Source: Opitutaceae bacterium TAV5
GTDB taxonomy: Bacteria; Verrucomicrobiota; Verrucomicrobiia; Opitutales; Opitutaceae
Length of the DNA stretch: 64,000 bases
Assembly: GCA_000242935.3 (NCBI GenBank)
Contig: CP007053.1
Span: forward strand, 124,001 to 188,000
Direction: 5' to 3'
Under the pieces are notes generated by a model. The model saw nothing but the letters and a program-made list of their open reading frames with translations, did not search any database and had not been told where the DNA came from. Shown piece by piece: positions 1 to 56,192 of the stretch; position 1 is the stretch's first letter; each line of letters starts with the position of its first letter. Made by a program: the position numbers and the translations under genes.

Positions 1-825
1 AATGCTGCCGGGCTCGATATCGAGAGAATGGACATAGGGAGCCCAGTCGGGACCGGGCGCAATCGTGGACGGCGCATAAGCGGAACCGGCCGGCGCGGGT
101 TCATAACGGAAGGTAACATCGAGCGTGGCTTTTTTGAGCGGGGAACGTTGCGGGGAAAAGCGGATACGCAGGGTGCAGGTGCGTGCCGCGGTGCTCCACT
201 TGCGGTTGTCCTGGAGGACAACGGAATAGTTGCCCGTGATGACAATCGAGCCGCCGGCGGTGGGCAGGGTCAAGGTGTGCCCGCCCGTGGAGGCGGCGAA
301 GATATTCTGTTTGTCGAGCGTCGCGGGAAGGCGGTAATCGCTCCCGTCCAGCGTGAAGATGCGGTCGAGGTAGCGGGAGATCGGGATGTCACACTGGAGG
401 CTGACTTCGCGGGTGGGGATGCCGCCGGGCGCATCCACGCTCGCCTCCCAGACCGCCCGGAAGGAGGCCGGTGACAGCGGCGTGAATTTCTGGGCAAGGT
501 GGAGCGTCGCGGTGGAACCGGGAGCAAGCGTGCCTCGCGTTTCCCAGGTATTGGCGGAGGCGTCAAGACGCGGGTAGCCTTCGGCGCGGGCGAGATCCTT
601 CTGGAGCGTTTTTTTCCAGTTGTCGTCGAAGTGGATGACTTCAAAGCCGAGTCCGTCGACCCGGAAGACGCCGCTGGCGTTCATGCGGAAGTCGCGCACC
701 TCGGAAACGGTGAATTTAGAGGAGTCTGATGTCTGTGCAGAAAGAGTAACCGTCAGCCGGAGCTGGCCGGAAACGGCTGCACAAACTATCAGCGCAACGA
801 GCAGGGAACGACATCGAGGATACAT
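1..825 (-). CDS. Exported protein of unknown function, 3' end beyond window
   Basis: Open for 275 codons from an ATG at 825 to the left edge, so only the N-terminal part is visible. Residues 1-30 form a basic/hydrophobic leader consistent with Sec export; the remainder is rich in beta-type sequence with many Asp, Gly, Ser and Thr and has no motif I recognise. It lies downstream of a prepilin-like gene on the same strand and close to a PEP-CTERM gene and a LacI regulator, so a role in surface or carbohydrate biology is plausible but only inferred from neighbours. The missing C-terminus could carry the defining domain, for example a glycoside hydrolase. Confidence 0.75.
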   Translation of the reverse strand, partial: MYPRCRSLLVALIVCAAVSGQLRLTVTLSAQTSDSSKFTVSEVRDFRMNASGVFRVDGLGFEVIHFDDNWKKTLQKDLARAEGYPRLDASANTWETRGTLAPGSTATLHLAQKFTPLSPASFRAVWEASVDAPGGIPTREVSLQCDIPISRYLDRIFTLDGSDYRLPATLDKQNIFAASTGGHTLTLPTAGGSIVITGNYSVVLQDNRKWSTAARTCTLRIRFSPQRSPLKKATLDVTFRYEPAPAGSAYAPSTIAPGPDWAPYVHSLDIEPGSI

Positions 826-882
826 AACCAGATTGTGAATACACTTCTATCTGTACGTGACAGAATCGCGTAGCGGACCAAA

Positions 883-1617
883 TCAGCGTCCATACCAGAA
901 AAGACTTGAACCGGAATCCGATGCGATATCGGCATCCCCCTTGCCGTAACCCGGGATCTGCTGTTGACCGAGTGAGGCGACATGGCCGTCGAGGAACAAG
1001 CAGTTGACCTGATTGCCGTGCGCAATTTCGGGCGGCTTGTTGGCAGCCATCATGTCTCCGAAAAGCTTGTTGGTGGAATCCCAGAAACCATCGGCCATGA
1101 CAAGAGTGCGGGAAGGCGCGGACAGTTCGGCATAGCGCGGACGCGGTTGTGCATTGATGCTCCGCCACGGATTGCTGGCATTATTGCGCGTAGGCATTCC
1201 GTTAATGCTATAGGTACGACTCAGGTCACTGGTTTTGTCATGCAGGAGACGTTGCTCAGGACAGTTGAAGACCTTGATCAGAGCTTTCCTGGATGCGTCA
1301 TTGCTGTCGTTGATTTCCTTGACCAGGTCCTGAAAAAACCCGCGACCGGTCCCGTCATTCCAGGCCAGTGGCAACCGGTCCCGGTCATCGTTCACCTTCT
1401 CCATATAGACGATGAACATCTGGCGAAGATTGGAAGAGCACTGCGCTTTCCTCGCGGCTGAACGAACCTTGCCAACCGTGGGGATCAGGATCGCGGCCAG
1501 GATGCCAATGATGGCGATGACGGTCAACAATTCGATCAGGGTGAAGCCGGCAGGCCGTACGTCAGGAGCGACACCGGTGGACGAGGCGGAATGATCGGGG
1601 AGCAATGGAGTAGTCAT
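883..1617 (-). CDS. Prepilin-type N-terminal domain secreted protein
   Basis: 244 residues from ATG at 1617; a longer reading from 1728 would put about 37 poorly conserved residues before the leader. The type IV prepilin/pseudopilin signature [18 protein letters not shown] sits near residue 25, with Glu at position 5 after the expected cleavage. The C-terminal half carries the short FLDGHVASL motif seen in the large Planctomycetota/Verrucomicrobiota families of pseudopilin-like proteins with an H-X9-DG ending. Such proteins are processed by prepilin peptidase and presumably displayed through a type II secretion-like apparatus; the actual substrate is unknown. It neighbours a PEP-CTERM gene upstream and an exported protein downstream on the same strand. 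Confidence 0.85.
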
Positions 1618-1627
1618 GGATGGAATG

Positions 1628-1639
1628 GAAAACGATTTC
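1628..1639. promoter_or_regulatory. Candidate LacI-type half-palindrome upstream of prepilin-like gene
   Basis: GAAAACGATTTC is a near-perfect palindrome (10 of 12 positions) with the central CG typical of LacI-family operators, 10 bp upstream of the ATG at 1617. A LacI-family gene lies 1 kb away. Binding is inferred only. Confidence 0.3.
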
Positions 1640-1742
1640 TTTCCCGAAAAGTAAACGGGACCACAGAGGACACGGTCTGGCGCGGATAAAAACAGTCGAC
1701 AGGAAAAGGGCCGGACAGGCCGTGCCATCTGTGGCAGGAGGT

Positions 1743-2507
1743 TTAGCGGCAGCGAATGCGCGCCCTCGTGCGCCAGAGAGCCAGCGGAATAAAAATCCCG
1801 CCGAGAATCAGGGCGCAGGTGGAGGGCTCGGGGATGGCCTGGGTGGCGGTGAAGGAAAAGCTGTCAAACTGGACGTTGGCGCTGTTGGCATAGAGACCGA
1901 CGCCCGTGAAGGCGGCGCCGGTGTAGGTTACCGAGTTACCCATTTTCGTGCCATCGAGATACGCGGTATAAACCCATGAATCGCCCGTCGTATCCAGTTC
2001 GAGTTTCAATACACCGCTTGTTTTGACGGTTGAAGTATTTTGGGCGGAATAGCCGGACGTGTAAAGCGTGGTGCCTTTTCCCTCGTTGCGCAGGACAAAT
2101 GCCCCGCGATGCAGGCTGGACCCTGAAAGCCCTCCTGTTGCGAATGTCGGCGAATCATCGATCGTGAACGAGATTCCGCCGAAGTATCCATTGGCCGAAG
2201 TCCCGGTTTGGGATACATCCACGGTCACGGACAACTCATACTTGAAGCCGTCCTTGAAATCGTAAGCGAGCCATGCGGAACCCGCACCGGCAGTGGAACC
2301 GTCGGCCTTGAAATTGGCGTTGGCCGTCCAGGTGAGAGCGGCGCTGCCATCGGACGCCAGGCCGGTGCTCAGGCCGCCGAGAGCGGTAGTGCTGCTTCCG
2401 GTGAAGTCGTCTTCCCAGGTCGTGGACGATGTGCTCTGCGCGTGAGCGAGGCTGGCAAGGCCGAGGCAGGCCAGCGTTGCGGCAAGTGTCTTGAATGAGG
2501 TTTTCAT
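1743..2507 (-). CDS. PEP-CTERM sorting-domain exported protein
   Basis: 254 residues from ATG at 2507, chosen because it begins a clean signal peptide ([16 protein letters not shown], Ala-His-Ala-Gln cleavage region). The body is a Gly/Ser/Thr-rich beta-sandwich-like sequence resembling LamG/concanavalin-like carbohydrate-binding folds. The C-terminus has [13 protein letters not shown] followed by a hydrophobic run and an Arg-rich tail, which is the PEP-CTERM signal recognised by exosortase for surface delivery and often linked to exopolysaccharide. Divergent from the LacI regulator at 2596, with an 88-bp intergenic region shared by both promoters. Ligand unknown. Confidence 0.85.
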
Positions 2508-2573
2508 GATGCTTCGGGTGACTTGAATCTGCTTGTGGATGCCGCGATGCAGGCTTGCGCGAAAGCCCGGGAG

Positions 2574-2589
2574 CGTTTTACATAAAACG
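2574..2589. promoter_or_regulatory. Perfect 16-bp palindrome in the PEP-CTERM/lacI divergent promoter
   Basis: CGTTTTACATAAAACG has 7-bp arms around CA and ends 6 bp before the LacI-family start codon at 2596. A palindrome here is a natural site for autoregulation and for control of the divergent PEP-CTERM gene. Function is inferred from position and symmetry. Confidence 0.4.
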
Positions 2590-2595
2590 AATCCC

Positions 2596-3621
2596 ATGAG
2601 CAAAACCGGTCCCGGCCTCTCCGATATCGCCTCCAGGGCGGGCGTCTCGCGCATGACCGTGTCGCTGGCGTTGCGCAATTCACCGCGTATCCTTCCGGAA
2701 ACGACAGAACGCATCCGGAAGATCGCCCGCGAGCTCGGTTATTCGCCCGATCCCCGCATGGCGGCGGCGATGGCGCGGGTGCGGGATGCGAAGAAAAAGG
2801 AACTGCAGCCGCTGGCCTGGATCAATGCCAACTCCCACCGCAACGCCTTCTCCGAATACAAATGGCTGTCCCCCTACATTGACGGTGCACAGGAAATGTG
2901 TCATGAACTCGGATACAGGCTGGACGAGTTCTGGCTGCGCGAGCCGGGCATGACGGAGCGGCGGTTGTCGTCGATCCTTTCGAATCGCGGCATCCGCGGC
3001 GTCATCGTCACGCCGACGCTGCCGAGCATCACTCATCTGCGGCTCGACTGGCGACAGTTTGCCAGCGTGTCGCTCGAAAACGCCATCCTGCTGCCGCGCC
3101 TGCATCGCGTGGTGCCGGATTATTATTACAACATCATGCTCACGCTCAAGATGCTGCGCCGGCTCGGCTACCGCCGCGTCGGCCTGTGCGTGCAGCAGCT
3201 GGAGGCGCGGCGGTCGCATCACAGTTACCAGGGGGCGCTGCGCGTCTTTCACGCGAGCATCCCGCGCACGGAGCGGACCGCCCCGCTGATTTTCCGTCCG
3301 TTCGATTTCGGGGAGTTCAGCCGCTGGCTGAAAACCCAGCGACCCGATGTGATCATCGGGCACCATTCGCGCATGGTCGAATGGCTGTCGGAGGCCGGAC
3401 TGCGCGTGCCGGAGGATATCGGCGTGGCGCATCTTTCGCTCGACGAGGATTGCGCCGACTGGGCGGGCATCTGGCAGCACAAGCGCCGCATCGGCGCACA
3501 GGTGGTCGAGCAGGTCGTATCGATGATTCACAACAATCGCACCGGGTTGCCCGATCTGGCGTACGAGACGCTGGTGCCGGGCGCGTGGCGGCACGGGTGG
3601 ACGCTGCGGAAGCGGGAGTAA
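2596..3621 (+). CDS. LacI-family transcriptional regulator
   Basis: 341 residues from ATG at 2596, chosen over the upstream in-frame start at 2533 because the HTH begins immediately (GLSDIASRAGVSRMTVSLAL). The HTH and hinge occupy residues about 5-60, followed by the periplasmic-binding-protein-like effector domain. The insert after the hinge (PDPRMAAAMARVRDAKK) is characteristic of the large LacI/PurR subgroup expanded in Opitutaceae. The effector is presumably a sugar or sugar derivative; the sequence does not say which. It is divergent from the PEP-CTERM gene and may control it through the palindrome between them. Confidence 0.92.
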   Translation: MSKTGPGLSDIASRAGVSRMTVSLALRNSPRILPETTERIRKIARELGYSPDPRMAAAMARVRDAKKKELQPLAWINANSHRNAFSEYKWLSPYIDGAQEMCHELGYRLDEFWLREPGMTERRLSSILSNRGIRGVIVTPTLPSITHLRLDWRQFASVSLENAILLPRLHRVVPDYYYNIMLTLKMLRRLGYRRVGLCVQQLEARRSHHSYQGALRVFHASIPRTERTAPLIFRPFDFGEFSRWLKTQRPDVIIGHHSRMVEWLSEAGLRVPEDIGVAHLSLDEDCADWAGIWQHKRRIGAQVVEQVVSMIHNNRTGLPDLAYETLVPGAWRHGWTLRKRE

Positions 3622-3642
3622 TACCCGTGGCCTCCAAATCTC

Positions 3643-3742
3643 CGGATTTTTTACACGAAGGTCGCAAAGAGCGCAAAGGTGGGTACAGGCAACAAAAAGA
3701 CTCGTTCCGGATCTTCGCGTTCTTCGCGATCTTTGTGTGAAA
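3643..3742. repeat. Intergenic inverted-repeat element, 'ACACGAAGGTCGCAAAG' family (copy 1)
   Basis: Left arm reads TTTTTTACACGAAGG then CGCAAAG repeats; right arm reads TTCGCGTTCTTCGCGATC then TTTGTGTGA, an imperfect inverted repeat of about 100 bp. A related copy lies at 35,005-35,082. It separates the convergent lacI-type gene and priA, so a bidirectional terminator role is possible. Confidence 0.6.
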
Positions 3743-3812
3743 TCAGAAACATCAGGGATACCGGTATCATTTTTCCCGGAAACGTTCGGGAGACTGGCGT
3801 TCCCGGCCCCGC

Positions 3813-6053
3813 TCAGCTCAGATTGACCGGGTCCACGTCGAGCACCTGCACAAATTGCTCGGGCCAGGTAAACGTCGCCCGCAGGCGCGAGAGGTCGGCG
3901 ACGATGGCGCTGACGTTGCCGTTGATGAAATACCAGAGCTGGAAACGGTACTCGTCCTTTATCTTCTCGATCGGGCATGGCGCGGGGCCGCGCAGCTCGA
4001 CCCGCGAACCGAGTTCCTTCTCGACGAGCTTCGCCCACTGCTCGGCGAAGAATTGCAGCTTTTCCGGATTCGGTCCGCGGAAGAGATGATGGATCAGATG
4101 ACGCGCGGGCGGGTAACCGAAATCGTTCCGGATCTTTAATTCGGTCTCCGCGAAGCCGTCGTAATCGGCATGTCGCGAAAACTGGATCGCGCCGGCCTGC
4201 GGCGTGAAGGTCTGCACGATCACCTCCCCTGCCCTGTCGCCGCGCCCGGCGCGGCCGGCCACCTGCACGAGAAGCTGGAAGGTGCGTTCGTTGGCGCGGA
4301 AATCCGGGACGTGCATCGAGATGTCGGCATCGACGAGCCCGACGAGCGTGACGTTGGGAAAATCGAGCCCCTTGCCGATCATCTGCGTGCCCACGAGCAG
4401 GTCGATCTTGCCGGCGCGAAACTCGGAGAGGAGTTGCCGGAAGCGGTTCTTTTTCTGCATCGTGTCCGCATCCATTCTTTCGATACGCGCATCGGGCAGC
4501 ACGCGGCGGACGGCTTCCTCCACGCGTTGCGTGCCCATGCCGCGCCAGCGGATGTCGGGCGCAGCGCACGAGGGGCAGCGGGCGGGGGCGGTTTTCTGAA
4601 AGCCGCAGAGGTGGCAGCGCAGCGTCTCGTCGGCGCGGTGGTAGGTGAGCGACACGCTGCAATGCGGGCACTCCTCGACGTGGCCGCATTTGCGGCACTG
4701 CATGGCGCTGGAGTAACCGCGGCGATTGAGGAAGAGGATCGTCTGCTCGCGTTTCGCGAAGCGGTCGCGCATGGCCTCGGCGAGTTTTCCGGAGAGCGTC
4801 GTGAAGCCGCGGTTCTGCATGGCCTCGATCCGCAGATCGACAATCTCGATGTGCGGAAGCTGGCGCGTGTCGATGCGCTTCGTGAGCCGGAGGAGCCCGT
4901 ACTTGCCGGCCTTCGCGTTGGCATGGGTTTCGAGCGAGGGCGTGGCCGAGCCGAGCAGGCAGAACGCGCCGGCGAGCTTGGCGCGCATCACGGCGACGTC
5001 GCGCCCGTGGTAACGCGGGGTTTCGTCCTGCTTGTAGGCGGGTTCGTGCTCCTCGTCCACGACGATGAGGCGGAGAGTGCGCACGGGGGCGAAGATAGCC
5101 GAGCGCGCGCCGACAACGATGCGGGCCTCGCCGGTCGCGAGCGCGAGCCAGCCGTCCATGCGTTCGCCGTCGTTGAGATGGCTGTGCCAGACCACAACCT
5201 TGTTGCCCGGCGCGATGGCTTCGAGGCGACCGCGCAGCCGGGCGACGGTTTGCGGGGTCAGGGCCACTTCGGGCACGAGAAACACCACGCCGCCGCCATC
5301 CGCCAGCGCATCGTGGATGGCGCGCAGGTAAACCTCCGTCTTGCCCGAGCCGGTGACGCCGTGCAGCAGCGTGACGCCGAAGGCGCGTGCGGCGAGCGCG
5401 GCGACGAGCGCGGTGGCGGCGGCCTGCTGTTCGTCGTTGAGGTTGTGCGGGAGCGCGGCCACGGATTCGCCGTCAGCCCATTCGTCGGCGTAGGCCACGC
5501 GCTCGACACGGCGTTCTTCCTCGCGGACCACGCCGCGTTTCACGAGCGCGTTGCTGGCGGCGGCGGTGATGCCGAGGCGGGCAAGAATGAGCGATTTTTT
5601 CTGCGGCCGAAACTGGTCGCGCAGGAAACGGTAGAGTTTCGCCTGGGCGGGGGCGCGGTGTTCGAGCCGGGCGAACTCCTCCGGATCGAGCGGCGTGGCG
5701 ATGGAGAGGAGTTTTTCGTACTTGAGCCCGGCGGCGTTGCGGACGGCGGCGGGCAGCATGGTTTCGATAATGCCGTCGAGCGGCGCGGCGTAGTAGCCGG
5801 CCATCCAGCGCGCGAGTTGCAGCAGGTCCGGCGGCAGGGCGGGGAACGGATAGACGATGTCGGCCAGCGTCTTGAGTTTCGCGACCGGGAAATCGATCGG
5901 CGTGTCGATCTCGCCGACGATGGCGAGCCGCAGGCGGTTGAGGATCGGCACGCGCACGAGCATCCCGACCTGCACCTGCGCGCCAAGCGACTCCGGCACC
6001 TTGTAGTGCAGGAGCTTGTCGAAACCGGCCAGAGGATGGACGCCAACGGTCAT
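3813..6053 (-). CDS. priA: Primosomal protein N' (replication restart helicase PriA)
   Basis: 746 residues from ATG at 6053 (MTVGVHPLAGFDKLLHYKV); an upstream in-frame start at 6233 would add 60 Arg-rich residues that look non-coding. PriA is a 3'-5' superfamily 2 DNA helicase that reloads DnaB at stalled forks. Visible features are an N-terminal 3'-DNA-binding region, Walker A GVTGSGKTEVY, the Walker B/DEAH-type DEEHEPAYK, motif III LLGSATPSLE, a zinc-binding segment with paired cysteines (CRKCGHVEECPHC, CHLCGF, CPSC) and the C-terminal motif VAGRAGRG. Length is normal for the family. Both neighbours are on the opposite strand, so it is probably monocistronic. Confidence 0.97.
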   Translation of the reverse strand: MTVGVHPLAGFDKLLHYKVPESLGAQVQVGMLVRVPILNRLRLAIVGEIDTPIDFPVAKLKTLADIVYPFPALPPDLLQLARWMAGYYAAPLDGIIETMLPAAVRNAAGLKYEKLLSIATPLDPEEFARLEHRAPAQAKLYRFLRDQFRPQKKSLILARLGITAAASNALVKRGVVREEERRVERVAYADEWADGESVAALPHNLNDEQQAAATALVAALAARAFGVTLLHGVTGSGKTEVYLRAIHDALADGGGVVFLVPEVALTPQTVARLRGRLEAIAPGNKVVVWHSHLNDGERMDGWLALATGEARIVVGARSAIFAPVRTLRLIVVDEEHEPAYKQDETPRYHGRDVAVMRAKLAGAFCLLGSATPSLETHANAKAGKYGLLRLTKRIDTRQLPHIEIVDLRIEAMQNRGFTTLSGKLAEAMRDRFAKREQTILFLNRRGYSSAMQCRKCGHVEECPHCSVSLTYHRADETLRCHLCGFQKTAPARCPSCAAPDIRWRGMGTQRVEEAVRRVLPDARIERMDADTMQKKNRFRQLLSEFRAGKIDLLVGTQMIGKGLDFPNVTLVGLVDADISMHVPDFRANERTFQLLVQVAGRAGRGDRAGEVIVQTFTPQAGAIQFSRHADYDGFAETELKIRNDFGYPPARHLIHHLFRGPNPEKLQFFAEQWAKLVEKELGSRVELRGPAPCPIEKIKDEYRFQLWYFINGNVSAIVADLSRLRATFTWPEQFVQVLDVDPVNLS

Positions 6054-6210
6054 GATGCGGGAGCGCGCGCGGAGCGCGAGTGCGGAGGGCGTTTGAGGCA
6101 CAAGCGGGCGGCGCGTGCAAGCGCGGGACGCGCGGCGGGGCGGAAGGAACCGGCGGCGCAAGACAAGGCGCACGGACAGCGGGAGGATTGACGTTTTCCG
6201 GGGAACGGAC

Positions 6211-51479: not shown

Positions 51480-52160
51480 ATGACCACACGCGCCACATGG
51501 ACCCCCCGGGCGCTCGCCTGGGGGTTGTTTCTGGTTTTCCTCTGGCAGGGAACCGCCCCCGTCCGTGCCGAGGAATATCACGGCAATCGCAACAGCCGGG
51601 TCTTTCACGCGCCGGACTGCCCCGACTTCAACTGCCGCAACTGCACGGAGAGTTTTGGCAGTTACGACGAGGCGATAAACGCGGGCTTCCGTCCGCATGT
51701 GCCGGTGCGCAATTATCCCGGCTGTATCAATGGCAGACCAAAACCACAACCAGCCTCCCGCACCGCCCCTGCCAGCCACACCGCGCCTGCACCCGGGGTT
51801 TCACCTCCCGTCGATGCGCTTGCCAACAGCGATTTCGAGTTGAAGCGTCTGTTCGACCAGAAAAAAAGCGACGTTTCTGTTTCCGGAAGAGGCGTGGTCA
51901 AGAGCCTGCTTGCCGACGATCTCAATGGCGACCGCCATCAGCGTTTCATCATCGAGCTGGCAAACGGCCAAACCCTGCTGATCGCACACAACATCGACGT
52001 TGCCAAGCGCGTCGAACCACTGGCCGTCGGCGACAGTATCGAGTTTCACGGCGAGTATGTGTGGACAGACAAAGGCGGCACCATCCACTGGACCCACCGC
52101 GACCGGAAAGGACGCCATCCCACGGGTTTCATCAGTGCCAACGGAAAAACCTTCCTGTGA
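51480..52160 (+). CDS. Exported Ada-type zinc-motif and DUF3465-domain protein
   Basis: 226 residues from ATG at 51,480. The signal peptide ends near TAPVRAEE. The N-terminal mature part (GNRNSRVFHAPDCPDFNC then YDEAINAGFRP) matches small Ada-type metal-binding motifs found in nuclease-associated exported proteins. The C-terminal domain (SVSGRGVVKSLLADD, HQRFIIELANGQTLLIAHN, DSIEFHGEYVW, GTIHWTHRD) is a DUF3465 domain, an OB-like fold of unknown role. Both halves are recognised from motifs; cellular function is unknown. Confidence 0.85.
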   Translation: MTTRATWTPRALAWGLFLVFLWQGTAPVRAEEYHGNRNSRVFHAPDCPDFNCRNCTESFGSYDEAINAGFRPHVPVRNYPGCINGRPKPQPASRTAPASHTAPAPGVSPPVDALANSDFELKRLFDQKKSDVSVSGRGVVKSLLADDLNGDRHQRFIIELANGQTLLIAHNIDVAKRVEPLAVGDSIEFHGEYVWTDKGGTIHWTHRDRKGRHPTGFISANGKTFL

Positions 52161-53407: not shown

Positions 53408-53506
53408 ACATAACGTCCAAGATCAACCATGGAGGTAGATGGCGCGGCTCATGCCTCAGCATGAGGCGTGACGGCTACCGGAATTGACCGCAGCGCCTTG
53501 TTAGGC
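53408..53506 (-). other. attC site A (99 bp)
   Basis: In cassette orientation it starts with R'' GCCTAAC (53,506-53,500) and ends with R' GTTATGT (53,414-53,408). L'-like CTTGGACG precedes R'. The centre folds around CCTCATGCTGAGGCATGAG. It is about 90% identical to attC site C (9 differences in 95 aligned positions). The stop codon TAA of the upstream cassette gene lies inside R''. Confidence 0.88.
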
Positions 53507-54112: not shown

Positions 54113-54260
54113 AATTTTTCTGCCTAGACATTATAGCTGAGGGCAAGAGCGATCTGTAAAAGGGAGCGCTTGTCCCCTAAGCGTGGGTTGCCCCGGGAAG
54201 CGGGGCCTATCCACAAGGCTGAGAGTATAACCCAAACAACCTGAAAACGAGGACAAGCGC

Positions 54261-55385
54261 ATGAGAAAGACAGAGCACTATGTTGGACTGGATGTCCACA
54301 AAGATACAGTGATGGTGGCGGTGGCCGATGGCGGCCGCGAGGGCGAGGTTCGCCTTTACGGGCAGATCAGCAATGATTTGCACGCCATAGAGAAGGCGTT
54401 AAGGAAGATCGGATCGGACGGCGGGGCATTGCACGTGGCCTACGAGGCGGGGCCGACCGGCTACGTGATTTATCGCCGGTTGATGCAATTACAGATTGAG
54501 TGCGTGGTGGTGGCTGCATCGAAGACGCCGGTGGACAAGGCGGCACGGCGCAAGACGGACCGCCGGGATGCACAGATGCTGGCGCGGTTGCACCGGGCCG
54601 GGGAGTTGACCGCCGTGCACGTGCCGGACGCGGCGGACGAAGCCATGCGCGATTTGACCCGGGCCAGGGCGGACGCGGTGCACGACCTGACGCGGGCCCG
54701 GCAGCGCCTCAAGTCGTTTTTGTTGCGTCATGGTTATCGTTACTCGGGCAAGGCGAACTGGAGTGAGGCGCACCGTCGGTATCTGCGAGAGCTGGTGTTG
54801 CCGTTGCCGGGGCTCAAGGCGGTGCTCGAGGAATACCTTTTGGCCATCAGTCAGTGCGAGGACCGGGTGAACCGGCTGGAGCAATTGCTGGAATTGCAGG
54901 CGCCCTTGTGGCGCTTGTATCCGGCGGTCGAGGCTCTGATGACGCTGCGTGGCGTTCAATTGGTCGCCGCAGCCGTGCTGGTCGCAGAGTTGGGCGATAT
55001 ACGCAGGTTTACTCATCCGCGTGACCTGATGGCGTTTCTTGGGCTAGTGCCCAAGGAGGAAAGCTCGGGGCAAACCCGCAAACTCGGTTCGATCACCAAG
55101 GCCGGCAACGCCCATGCGCGCTGGATACTGGTCGAAATGGTCCAGCACGCCTGGTTACCGCCCAAGGTCTCCGCGCACTTGTCCAAACGGCAGGAAGGCC
55201 AGCCCGTGCACAGAAAAGAATTGGCTTGGAAGGTCCAGTTGCGGCTGCACAGCCGCGCATGGCACCTGAGCCGGCGCGGCGTGATGAAGCCCAAAATCAC
55301 CGTGGCCCTCGCTCGCGAAATGGCCGGCTTTGTCTGGGCCATGCTCAAAACCGTCGACTGGGATCATATGACTCGCTGCGCATAA
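54261..55385 (+). CDS. IS110-family transposase (DEDD recombinase)
   Basis: 374 residues from ATG at 54,261. The N-terminal DEDD/RuvC-like domain carries Asp11 (GLDVHKDT), Glu62 (YEAGPTG), and Asp100/Asp103 (RRKTDRRDA). The C-terminal Transposase_20 domain has LMTLRGVQLVAAAVLVAELG and the catalytic serine region KLGSITKAGNAHARW (Ser277). Length and motifs are complete, so the enzyme is probably active. Its target, an integron attC, matches the known habit of IS1111-attC elements. Confidence 0.95.
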   Translation: MRKTEHYVGLDVHKDTVMVAVADGGREGEVRLYGQISNDLHAIEKALRKIGSDGGALHVAYEAGPTGYVIYRRLMQLQIECVVVAASKTPVDKAARRKTDRRDAQMLARLHRAGELTAVHVPDAADEAMRDLTRARADAVHDLTRARQRLKSFLLRHGYRYSGKANWSEAHRRYLRELVLPLPGLKAVLEEYLLAISQCEDRVNRLEQLLELQAPLWRLYPAVEALMTLRGVQLVAAAVLVAELGDIRRFTHPRDLMAFLGLVPKEESSGQTRKLGSITKAGNAHARWILVEMVQHAWLPPKVSAHLSKRQEGQPVHRKELAWKVQLRLHSRAWHLSRRGVMKPKITVALAREMAGFVWAMLKTVDWDHMTRCA

Positions 55386-55759
55386 GCCAACCACGTCTGC
55401 GAAGAGGGGGAGGATGTTCTTTCAAAGGCCGAATGGCGGCACAAGTCAGGGACCGGGCGGCCGGCCCATGCATGTTGACGTTAGGGGCAGCGGTATCGGA
55501 GCCTATCCGTCCGCCACGCACGAGCCTAGGGCATGCGGGCAAGACGCACCAATGAACTGTCGGTAACCAACCCGCGTAGATCAGCACGATCACGGTTTAC
55601 AGCCAGGATCACGCCAACCAACCCACGCACGCGTTTATCCTATAATCGACCGGTCCCTGTCCTGTGCCTCCATCGGCAAAATAGTTTATATAAACAGATA
55701 CCTGATAAATCATTGGGCTGCCACTGCTTTTTCCCTCTTGCAGAATCGCAGCTAGATCA
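55386..55759 (+). ncRNA. Candidate guide (bridge/seek) RNA region of the IS1111-like element
   Basis: 374 bp of non-coding sequence between the transposase stop and the right end, where IS1111-subgroup elements encode their guide RNA. GACGTTAGG at 55,477-55,485 is identical to nine bases spanning the insertion point of the attC target (cassette strand). GCCTAG (55,524-55,529) repeats the left junction and TAGATCA (55,577-55,583) repeats the right IS end, candidates for other guide segments. RNA boundaries are not determinable by eye. Confidence 0.55.
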
Positions 55760-55861
55760 ACGTCCAAGATGAGCCATGCGAGAGGGGGAGTAACGAGAAT
55801 CAAAAACCCTTACGAAAACCAGCGAAGCAGCAATCGCATTGGCTCCAGCGATTTGTTAGGC
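55759..55861 (-). other. attC site B (R' core interrupted by the IS)
   Basis: In cassette orientation it starts with R'' GCCTAAC (55,861-55,855). AATCGCTGGAGCC and GGCTCATCTTGGACG form the L-type arms, with a TGCGATTGCTGCTTCGC segment between. It ends at GTT, after which the IS begins. The rest of R' (AGGC) lies beyond the IS at 54,125-54,122. Confidence 0.82.
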
Positions 55862-56093: not shown

Positions 56094-56192
56094 GCCTAAC
56101 GTCCAAGATCAGCCATGGAGGTAGATGGCGCGACTCATGCGACAGCATGAGGCGTGACAGCTACCGGAATTGGCTGCATCGCCTTGTTCGGC
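56094..56192 (-). other. attC site C (99 bp)
   Basis: In cassette orientation R'' is GCCGAAC (56,192-56,186) and R' is GTTAGGC (56,100-56,094), the exact consensus GTTRRRY. L' CTTGGACG precedes R'. The centre folds around GCCTCATGCTGTCGCATGAG. About 90% identical to attC site A. Confidence 0.9.

What the first reader, a model, noticed from the sequence alone, without database searches (positions are those of the whole stretch)
55386..55759. Putative guide RNA with a 9-nt word matching the attC target
Known: IS110-family transposases use a non-coding guide (bridge/seek) RNA, encoded 3' of the ORF in IS1111-type elements. Seen: the 374-bp 3' tail has GACGTTAGG at 55,477-55,485, identical to the attC sequence that spans the insertion point. 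A chance 9-mer match in this length is unlikely, about 0.003 by simple counting on both strands. GCCTAG (55,524) and TAGATCA (55,577) repeat the left junction and right IS end. Inferred: these are the target and donor guide segments of an attC-directed guide RNA.
Basis: partly seen in the sequence, partly recalled or inferred. Interest (0 to 1): 0.85.

Follow-up and report, generated by a model that had tools for sequence, protein, structure and literature searches.

The report
RNA-guided jumping element targeting integrons
The stretch after this transposase gene very probably encodes a guide RNA that steers a small mobile element into the recombination sites of integrons; the principle is known, but this element belongs to a separate branch that appears to hit a different spot in those sites.

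Summary
In detail: GACGTTAGG (55477-55485), GCCTAG (55524) and TAGATCA (55577) are where stated. The element is 54127-55759. Five near-identical copies in this genome all sit at CCTA|ACGT of different attC sites; the genome also has an integron integrase. The 9-mer alone arises in 12 of 5000 shuffles. The decisive evidence comes from 46 elements (this one included). In the 29 whose target does not begin ACG, the homologous guide matches the element's own target (4.52 of 6 bases, 1.97 for other elements' targets; 0 of 100000 permutations). The donor word follows the element's own right end (42 of 46 perfect). A covariance model built without this clade finds window 55446-55603 first (E 2.9e-7) and puts both target words in one internal loop. 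GCCTAG is the left-target guide, TAGATCA the left-donor guide; a weaker fourth word (TGTC, 55558) fits the right donor. The principle is known (seekRNA/bridge RNA; ISKpn4 and ISPst6 target attC). What seems new is the lineage: a clade apart from IS1111-core transposases, with attC-like targets in three phyla, inserting at GCCTA|ACG rather than near the other end of attC. No RNA or transposition was measured.

The parts
54122..54126 (+). Left half of the interrupted attC core (GCCTA|)
   Evidence: five copies share CCTA| at the left junction; intact GCCTAACGTC at 56094-56103
54127..55759 (+). Insertion sequence, 1633 bp
   Evidence: ends defined by 5 own copies in 5 different attC sites and by the anatomy of relatives
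54134..54141 (+). Left subterminal inverted repeat TAGCTGAG (7 of 8 with the right one; perfect 8 bp in L012 and L023)
54261..55385 (+). Transposase, 374 aa, DEDD_Tnp_IS110 + Transposase_20; D11, E62, D100, D103 and GLVPKEESSG motif
55386..55759 (+). Non-coding 3' region that holds the guide RNA
   Evidence: alignment of 47 elements
55446..55603 (+). Predicted guide RNA core
   Evidence: best covariance-model hit in the window, 31.5 bits, E 2.9e-7, model built without this clade
55464..55476 (+). Outer stem of the target loop, 5' arm (pairs with 55530-55540)
   Evidence: fold of the window with guides held unpaired; homologous outer stem in relatives has compensatory changes
55477..55485 (+). 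Target guide for the top strand, GACGUUAGG (pairs CCTA|ACGTC)
55487..55519 (+). Inner hairpin between the two target guides
   Evidence: inner stem covaries in relatives
55524..55529 (+). Target guide for the bottom strand, GCCUAG (left target GCCTA)
55530..55540 (+). Outer stem of the target loop, 3' arm
55558..55561 (+). Probable right-donor guide UGUC (complement of the left end GACA)
   Evidence: weak
55577..55583 (+). Left-donor guide UAGAUCA (same as the right end of the element)
55747..55754 (+). Right subterminal inverted repeat CGCAGCTA
55760..55861 (+). Rest of the interrupted attC, ending GTTAGGC
   Evidence: core partner at +95, 7 of 7

Best explanation
The 3' tail encodes a bridge/seek-type guide RNA of about 150 nt. 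It binds the encoded DEDD transposase and directs the element, probably as a circle, into integron attC sites. In one internal loop, GACGUUAGG pairs with the target top strand across the insertion point and GCCUAG with the left target on the bottom strand; in a following multiloop, UAGAUCA and probably UGUC pair with the element's own right and left ends. The element enters at GCCTA|ACG, that is inside the GTTRRRY core at the end of the site away from its cassette gene, and thereby splits the site. Shown by computation: the ends, the target position, the words, their covariation with targets and ends, and the conserved structure. Inferred: transcription, binding, base pairing, circular intermediate, and loss of attC function.
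For: Five near-identical copies in five different attC sites, same position and orientation; a perfect 7-base core partner downstream in 4 of 5 own sites and in L112 (5 of 21 ACG-type sites, 0.1 expected from shuffles; 0 of 29 others). Integron integrase in the genome, 390 bits, cut-off 265. Target guide against own target, 29 non-ACG elements: 4.52 of 6 vs 1.97, 0 of 100000 permutations. Left-target guide, positions -5..-3: 1.86 vs 0.99, 0 of 100000. Left-donor guide vs right end, 46 elements: 5.91 vs 4.42, 0 of 100000; 42 of 46 perfect, the other 4 with one mismatch, with changed pairs in L085, L099, L126, L142 and the window clade. Structure: 12 of 21 pairs with changes on both sides, covariation 0.301 vs 0.112 shuffled and 0.042-0.090 slid. 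Model built on 25 other elements finds window 55446-55603 first (E 2.9e-7), a hit in 16 of 16 further loci of the family (L012 at noise level) and in 0 of 17 IS1111-core/IS110 loci. Experimental precedent: PMC11187229.
Against: No expression or binding data. The window RNA alone is no more stable than shuffles (55445-55612: z +0.83; whole tail z -1.61, 6 of 100), and its unconstrained fold pairs much of the target words; holding the guides open costs 3.6 kcal/mol. Guide match is imperfect in relatives: 6 of 29 non-ACG elements match 3 or fewer of 6 (L072, L085, L096 misaligned at that column; L044 and L078 look one base out of register; L102 unexplained), and L064 of the 17 ACG-type ones. L012, in this very clade, has GACGTTCGG against AACGTTAGG and only 12.5 bits with the model, below a chance hit of 14 bits. 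The slide-by-1 control of the target guide is not null (115 of 20000). Unanchored left-target tests are mostly not significant (110 to 6075 of 20000, control 1881), and anchored positions -6..-4 are not (6236 of 100000). The right-donor guide is weak (2.78 vs 2.47 of 4). Permutations do not remove relatedness.
Confidence: 0.9

Rival explanations
1. Target choice rests mainly on the folded (cruciform or single-stranded) attC, recognised by the transposase, and the RNA word plays a minor part.
For: All five copies lie in attC although CCTAACGTY also occurs, intact, at five places outside the cassette clusters. attC sites are known to fold (recalled).
Against: Five occupied against 17 intact sites in clusters, and 0 against 5 elsewhere, is too little to tell. 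Relatives with the same RNA architecture have non-attC targets that their guide matches.
Confidence: 0.1
2. The RNA guides the target only (seekRNA); the element's ends are recognised by protein through the subterminal inverted repeats, and the donor word is not a guide.
For: Inverted repeats of 8-14 bp are present in relatives. The right-donor guide is weak. The parts of PMC11187229 read here (sections 6, 9, 14 and passages) describe target matches only.
Against: The TAGATCA word follows the right end through changes in L085, L099, L126, L142 and the window clade, and donor words in a multiloop were predicted for many IS1111 orthologues in PMC11208160 (section 12 read).
Confidence: 0.2
3. The words are chance or remnants of the insertion; there is no functional RNA.
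For: A 9-base match in any register occurs in 95 of 5000 shuffles.
Against: Covariation in 46 elements, structure with compensatory changes, held-out model hit.
Confidence: 0.02

Closest known systems
IS1111-attC elements ISKpn4, ISPst6, ISPa25 (ISPa21) with seekRNA (Siddiquee et al. 2024, PMC11187229; Tetu & Holmes 2008 and Post & Hall 2009, not readable here)
   Same: attC target; non-coding region downstream of tnp; two target words, top-strand match 5' of bottom-strand match; subterminal inverted repeats
   Different: Transposase 374 aa, against 330-350 stated for IS1111; apart from IS1111-core transposases in two trees (94/91 with the long-branched ISEc21 included; 100/100 without it). 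Three IS1111-core elements found here in sites that look like attC (L185, L186, L188) lie near the other end of the site. ISKpn4, ISPst6 and ISPa25 themselves could not be compared.
ISSfr2, ISSso6, ISEc45 (named IS110-like elements)
   Same: Same transposase clade, 42-51% identity
   Different: ISSfr2 (L040) and the relatives L041 and L044 have non-ACG targets with varying guides; ends and targets of ISSso6 and ISEc45 were not defined here
IS621 bridge RNA (Durrant et al. 2024, PMC11208160)
   Same: One RNA with target and donor words for both strands
   Different: RNA lies on the left end in IS621; donor words here are in a multiloop, as that paper predicts for many IS1111 orthologues

Membership tests
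IS110/IS1111 DEDD transposases | DEDD RuvC-like domain and C-terminal Transposase_20 domain | tested here: met
   PF01548 and PF02371 above cut-off; NF033542 255 bits, cut-off 140; D11, E62, D100, D103 invariant in the 9 rows of A1
IS1111 family | Long non-coding region downstream of tnp | tested here: met
   374 bp downstream, 134 bp upstream
IS1111 family | Subterminal inverted repeats of 7-17 bp | tested here: met
   7 of 8 in the window, 8-14 bp in relatives
IS1111 family | GL-P----S(t)G motif | tested here: met
   GLVPKEESSG
IS1111 family | Transposase 330-350 aa, clustering with IS1111-family transposases | tested here: not met
   374 aa; 25% to IS4321 over 249 positions; apart from IS4321, IS5708, ISShdy1 and others at 100/100, 94/91 with ISEc21 in the tree
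seekRNA | Top-strand match 5' of bottom-strand match in the RNA | tested here: met
   55477 before 55524; same order in relatives
seekRNA / bridge RNA | RNA expressed and bound by the transposase | not testable with these tools
   needs RNA sequencing and purification
bridge RNA | Donor words matching both element ends | tested here: inconclusive
   left-donor word strong, right-donor word weak
IS1111-attC group | Insertion in attC at one fixed place and orientation | tested here: met
   5 of 5 own copies, at CCTA|ACG
IS1111-attC group | Same place in attC and same transposase group as ISKpn4/ISPst6 | tested here: inconclusive
   those sequences not obtained; three IS1111-core stand-ins insert elsewhere in the site

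The most novel reading that the evidence does not exclude
A second, independent lineage of RNA-guided integron parasites: a non-IS1111-core clade in Verrucomicrobiota, Acidobacteriota and Pseudomonadota whose bridge RNA is programmed to the GTTRRRY core of attC, next to the point where the integron integrase recombines, while IS1111-core elements were programmed separately to the other end of the same site.
Probability: 0.5. Interest if true: 0.65.

Novelty: new variant of a known kind. Interest (0 to 1): 0.52.

Why it matters
It shows by natural covariation, without experiment, where target and donor guides lie in a large group of IS110/IS1111 elements outside those studied in the papers read. 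It suggests that RNA guides were programmed to integron recombination sites more than once. Elements that split attC cores could freeze cassettes in chromosomal arrays, which is directly testable. It also offers a set of naturally reprogrammed guide/target pairs for programmable DNA insertion.

Tried and rejected
Rfam: no match in the window at gathering scores. The tail word CTATAAT (about 55641, complement of ATTATAG in the left end) looked like a right-donor guide at first; it is kept in the near relative L011 and changed in L023, was not tested further, and was set aside because TGTC at 55558 fits the position and letters in more relatives. A second model hit at window 2207-2312 (14 bits, E 0.015) lies opposite a reading frame with a PEP-CTERM-like end (motif recalled), and the transposases used as queries find nothing else in the window: rejected as chance. 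RNAalifold over 41 sequences gave a poor fold; the 25-sequence alignment worked.

A mended control: one search counted a partner core (GTT plus at least 5 of 7) in 15 of 21 ACG-type sites and 1 of 29 others. That control is unfair, since the core of most other targets cannot pair with GTT. Repeated without the GTT rule, 5 of 7 does not discriminate (17 of 21, shuffles 17.6; others 22 of 29, shuffles 22.7), nor does 6 of 7 do much (7 of 21, shuffles 3.7; others 5 of 29, shuffles 4.2); 7 of 7 does (5 of 21, shuffles 0.1; others 0 of 29). An inverted-repeat test was significant at 0.05 in 10 of 21 ACG-type and 1 of 29 other sites (L126, which itself looks like attC). Because of this I lowered the probability of the novel case from 0.55 to 0.5.

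Rows dropped: 128 loci had a transposase match; 11 were set aside as copies or pieces of others, 50 gave ends, of which L011, L043, L051, L101 and L118 were removed as doubtful, and 7 of 72 remaining loci (these five among them) were accepted at score 13 or more, giving 52. L002-L005 were dropped as copies of L001 (48), L127 before the alignment (47), L113 afterwards (short tail; 46). The end search required TA|G and an inverted repeat 5-7 bases in, so that much of the anatomy holds by construction; the right-end letters were not required but favoured. The model alignment used 25 of the 40 segments prepared. The three IS1111-core elements in attC-like sites were picked by eye from 30 loci; full flanks were printed for L185 and L188 only, and no shuffle test was run on them. 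The trees left out L142 (no usable frame at the computed start).

Not obtained: ISKpn4, ISPst6, ISPa25 and ISEc11 sequences; Tetu & Holmes 2008 and Post & Hall 2009. Papers: PMC11187229 outline, sections 6, 9, 14 and passages; PMC11208160 section 12 and passages; passages only of PMC11616780, PMC12444791, PMC9229058, PMC11322120 and PMC10375995 (the last two name ISKpn40 and ISKpn42, not ISKpn4); others as listings. The statement that this clade's attC targeting was not seen in print rests on nine paper searches of an open-access library and the passages above.

Full report
What is there. The window lies in a 7.4 Mb genome whose family-level relatives include an Opitutae bacterium: locus L080, titled 'uncultured Opitutae bacterium', is identical over 3708 bases to L015 of a same-family genome. 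At 54127-55759 lies a 1633-bp insertion sequence with a 374-aa DEDD transposase and a 374-bp non-coding 3' tail. Four more full copies exist, with identical transposases. All five are at CCTA|ACGT, each in a different context. Four of the five right flanks carry a perfect core partner GTTAGGC 87-96 bases on; the fifth (L003) has GTTTGGC, 5 of 7. The genome encodes an integron integrase (390 bits, cut-off 265) about 1 kb from the first sites of an array that holds one of the copies; three other copies lie among further attC-like matches, and the copy near 7.27 Mb has only its own exact site in the list.

Position in attC. Neighbouring reading frames run on the minus strand. In that, the cassette's, orientation the site starts GCCTAACAA and ends GACGTTAGGC, and the element splits GACGT|TAGGC. 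This is the GTTRRRY core, one base from where integron integrases are known to exchange strands (recalled). The intact form GCCTAACGTC occurs at 56094-56103. Of 27 genome matches to CCTAACGTY, five are the guide words of the copies themselves, 17 lie in the cassette clusters by position, and five lie elsewhere; with five occupied sites this does not tell whether attC structure matters.

The words. All three words are at the stated places. The single 9-mer is suggestive only (12 of 5000 shuffles; 95 of 5000 if any register is allowed). The test that matters uses relatives. A scan of species genomes with an alignment of nine transposases gave 80 loci. With loci of the same family and phylum and plasmid records, 128 loci had a transposase match, and 52 had definable ends. 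The search required TA|G and an inverted repeat 5-7 bases in; the right ends then came out as CAT-ATCA or -GAGA in most, which was not required. After dropping copies and unalignable rows, 46 remained (17 with targets beginning ACG, 29 others).

Covariation. At the homologous column, after the conserved AACCCTCG, the guide matches the element's own right target: in the 29 non-ACG elements 4.52 of 6 bases against 1.97 for the targets of other elements (0 of 100000 permutations, largest 3.07; spans of 5 and 7 also 0 of 100000). Sliding the target by 2, 3 or 6 bases gives 17833, 1505 and 18281 of 20000; by 1 base 115 of 20000, perhaps because L044 and L078 are one base out of register. Examples: L079 AAAGTACTA for TA|GTACTTT, L056 GAAACCTA for TA|GGTTTC, L126 GGGTGTTA for TA|ACACCC. 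The left-target word varies with positions -5..-3 (1.86 vs 0.99; 0 of 100000; control 3812 of 20000), mostly through -3 (38 of 46 match); positions -6..-4 alone are not significant, and neither are most unanchored versions. The word after AACCCGCG equals the right end of the element: 42 of 46 perfect over six bases and 4 with five, including four single elements with unusual ends (L085, L099, L126, L142) and the window clade, where ATATCA reads AGATCA in both places. The right-donor word is weak (2.78 vs 2.47 of 4, best of six placements; 2 of 100000), though L012 differs on both sides (left end GGCA, word TGCC). These tests do not correct for relatedness; the slid controls carry the same relatedness.

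Results against. Six of 29 non-ACG elements and one of 17 ACG-type elements match at most 3 of 6. L012, a close relative, has mismatches to its own site. The window RNA is not unusually stable, and its free fold pairs the two target words in part. That is expected of two guides for opposite strands of one core, but it does not support the structure. With the guides held open, the fold costs 3.6 kcal/mol and shows the internal loop: outer stem 55464-55476 with 55530-55540, inner hairpin 55487-55519.

Structure. An alignment of 25 elements without the window's clade gives six helices. The target words lie on the two sides of one internal loop, and the donor words in a following multiloop. 95.0% of cells pair (84.8% shuffled); 12 of 21 pairs show changes on both sides (5.0 in shuffles); covariation is 0.301 against 0.112 shuffled and 0.042-0.090 slid. 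The structure was derived from these same sequences, which favours it. The model then finds window 55446-55603 first (31.5 bits, E 2.9e-7). Of 16 further family loci not used to build it, all have a hit at E up to 1, from 119.1 bits (L066, a near copy of L063, which was used) down to 12.5 bits (L012, E 0.044). None of 17 IS1111-core or IS110 loci has one. One chance hit of 14 bits at 2207-2312 shows the noise level, and L012 is below it.

attC among relatives. Besides the window's genome, L112 (Ferrimonas) has a perfect core partner. An inverted-repeat test on the right flank passes 0.05 in 9 of the 17 distinct ACG-type elements (L023, L049, L050, L052, L061, L066, L107, L112, L117) and in own copy L005, against 1 of 29 others (L126, attC-like itself); L001, L012, L060, L063, L064, L119, L135 and L142 do not pass, nor do own copies L002, L003 and L004. 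The passing ones cover Verrucomicrobiota, Acidobacteriota and Pseudomonadota; both Acidobacteriota loci are metagenome bins, whose assignment may be wrong.

Family and novelty. The transposase meets the layout marks of IS1111 (downstream non-coding region, inverted repeats, GL-P----SG), but not its length or its cluster. It is 25% identical to IS4321 over 249 positions, and 47 rows of this family separate from 11 IS1111-core rows at 100/100 (ISEc21 left out) and from five at 94/91 with ISEc21 in. The label attC (16 ACG-type rows plus L126) needs two changes among this family's labelled rows, and four over both clades, of which starred branches force two (there ISSso6 and ISEc45, whose targets are unknown, count as not attC). 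Three IS1111-core elements in sites that look like attC lie beside the other end of the site. attC-targeting IS1111 elements with an RNA guide are known (PMC11187229), so the principle is not new. A Shewanella survey reported no insertion sequences splitting attC (PMC9229058, passage); L119 from Shewanella fodinae looks like one, but its site failed the inverted-repeat test. I could not read the two original papers on attC-targeting elements nor compare ISKpn4, ISPst6 or ISPa25, so an earlier report of members of this clade is not excluded.

Mechanism, by step. Shown by sequence: ends, target, words, covariation, structure. From precedent: an RNA bound by the transposase guides circle formation and insertion. 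Inferred: that GACGUUAGG and GCCUAG pair with the two strands of the attC core, that UAGAUCA and UGUC pair with the circle junction, and that the split attC no longer recombines.

Noticed in passing
window 53409-53428 and 56095-56114: attC-like sites (56095 perfect, 53409 with 2 mismatches to the pattern) on either side of the element: the window crosses a cassette array about 285 kb from the integrase gene, so it looks like a cluster of attC sites without its own integrase.
   Followed up: partly
L011, L023, L029, L033, L035 (genome G046): A same-family genome holds several copies, some broken by frameshift or deletion; the six right junctions printed all read ACG and look like attC.
   Followed up: partly
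L074, L083, L090, L099: A group placed beside attC-type elements (L060, L061, L117; support 90/59) has other targets: possible natural reprogramming away from attC.
   Followed up: no
L040, L044, L091, L107: The four elements where the left-donor word and the right end differ at one of six bases.
   Followed up: no
window 51480-52160: Reading frame with a DUF3465 domain (144 bits), unrelated to the element.
   Followed up: no
L185, L186, L188: IS1111-core elements in sites that look like attC, inserted beside the (C/T)TTGTT(A/G)(T/G)GC end.
   Followed up: partly
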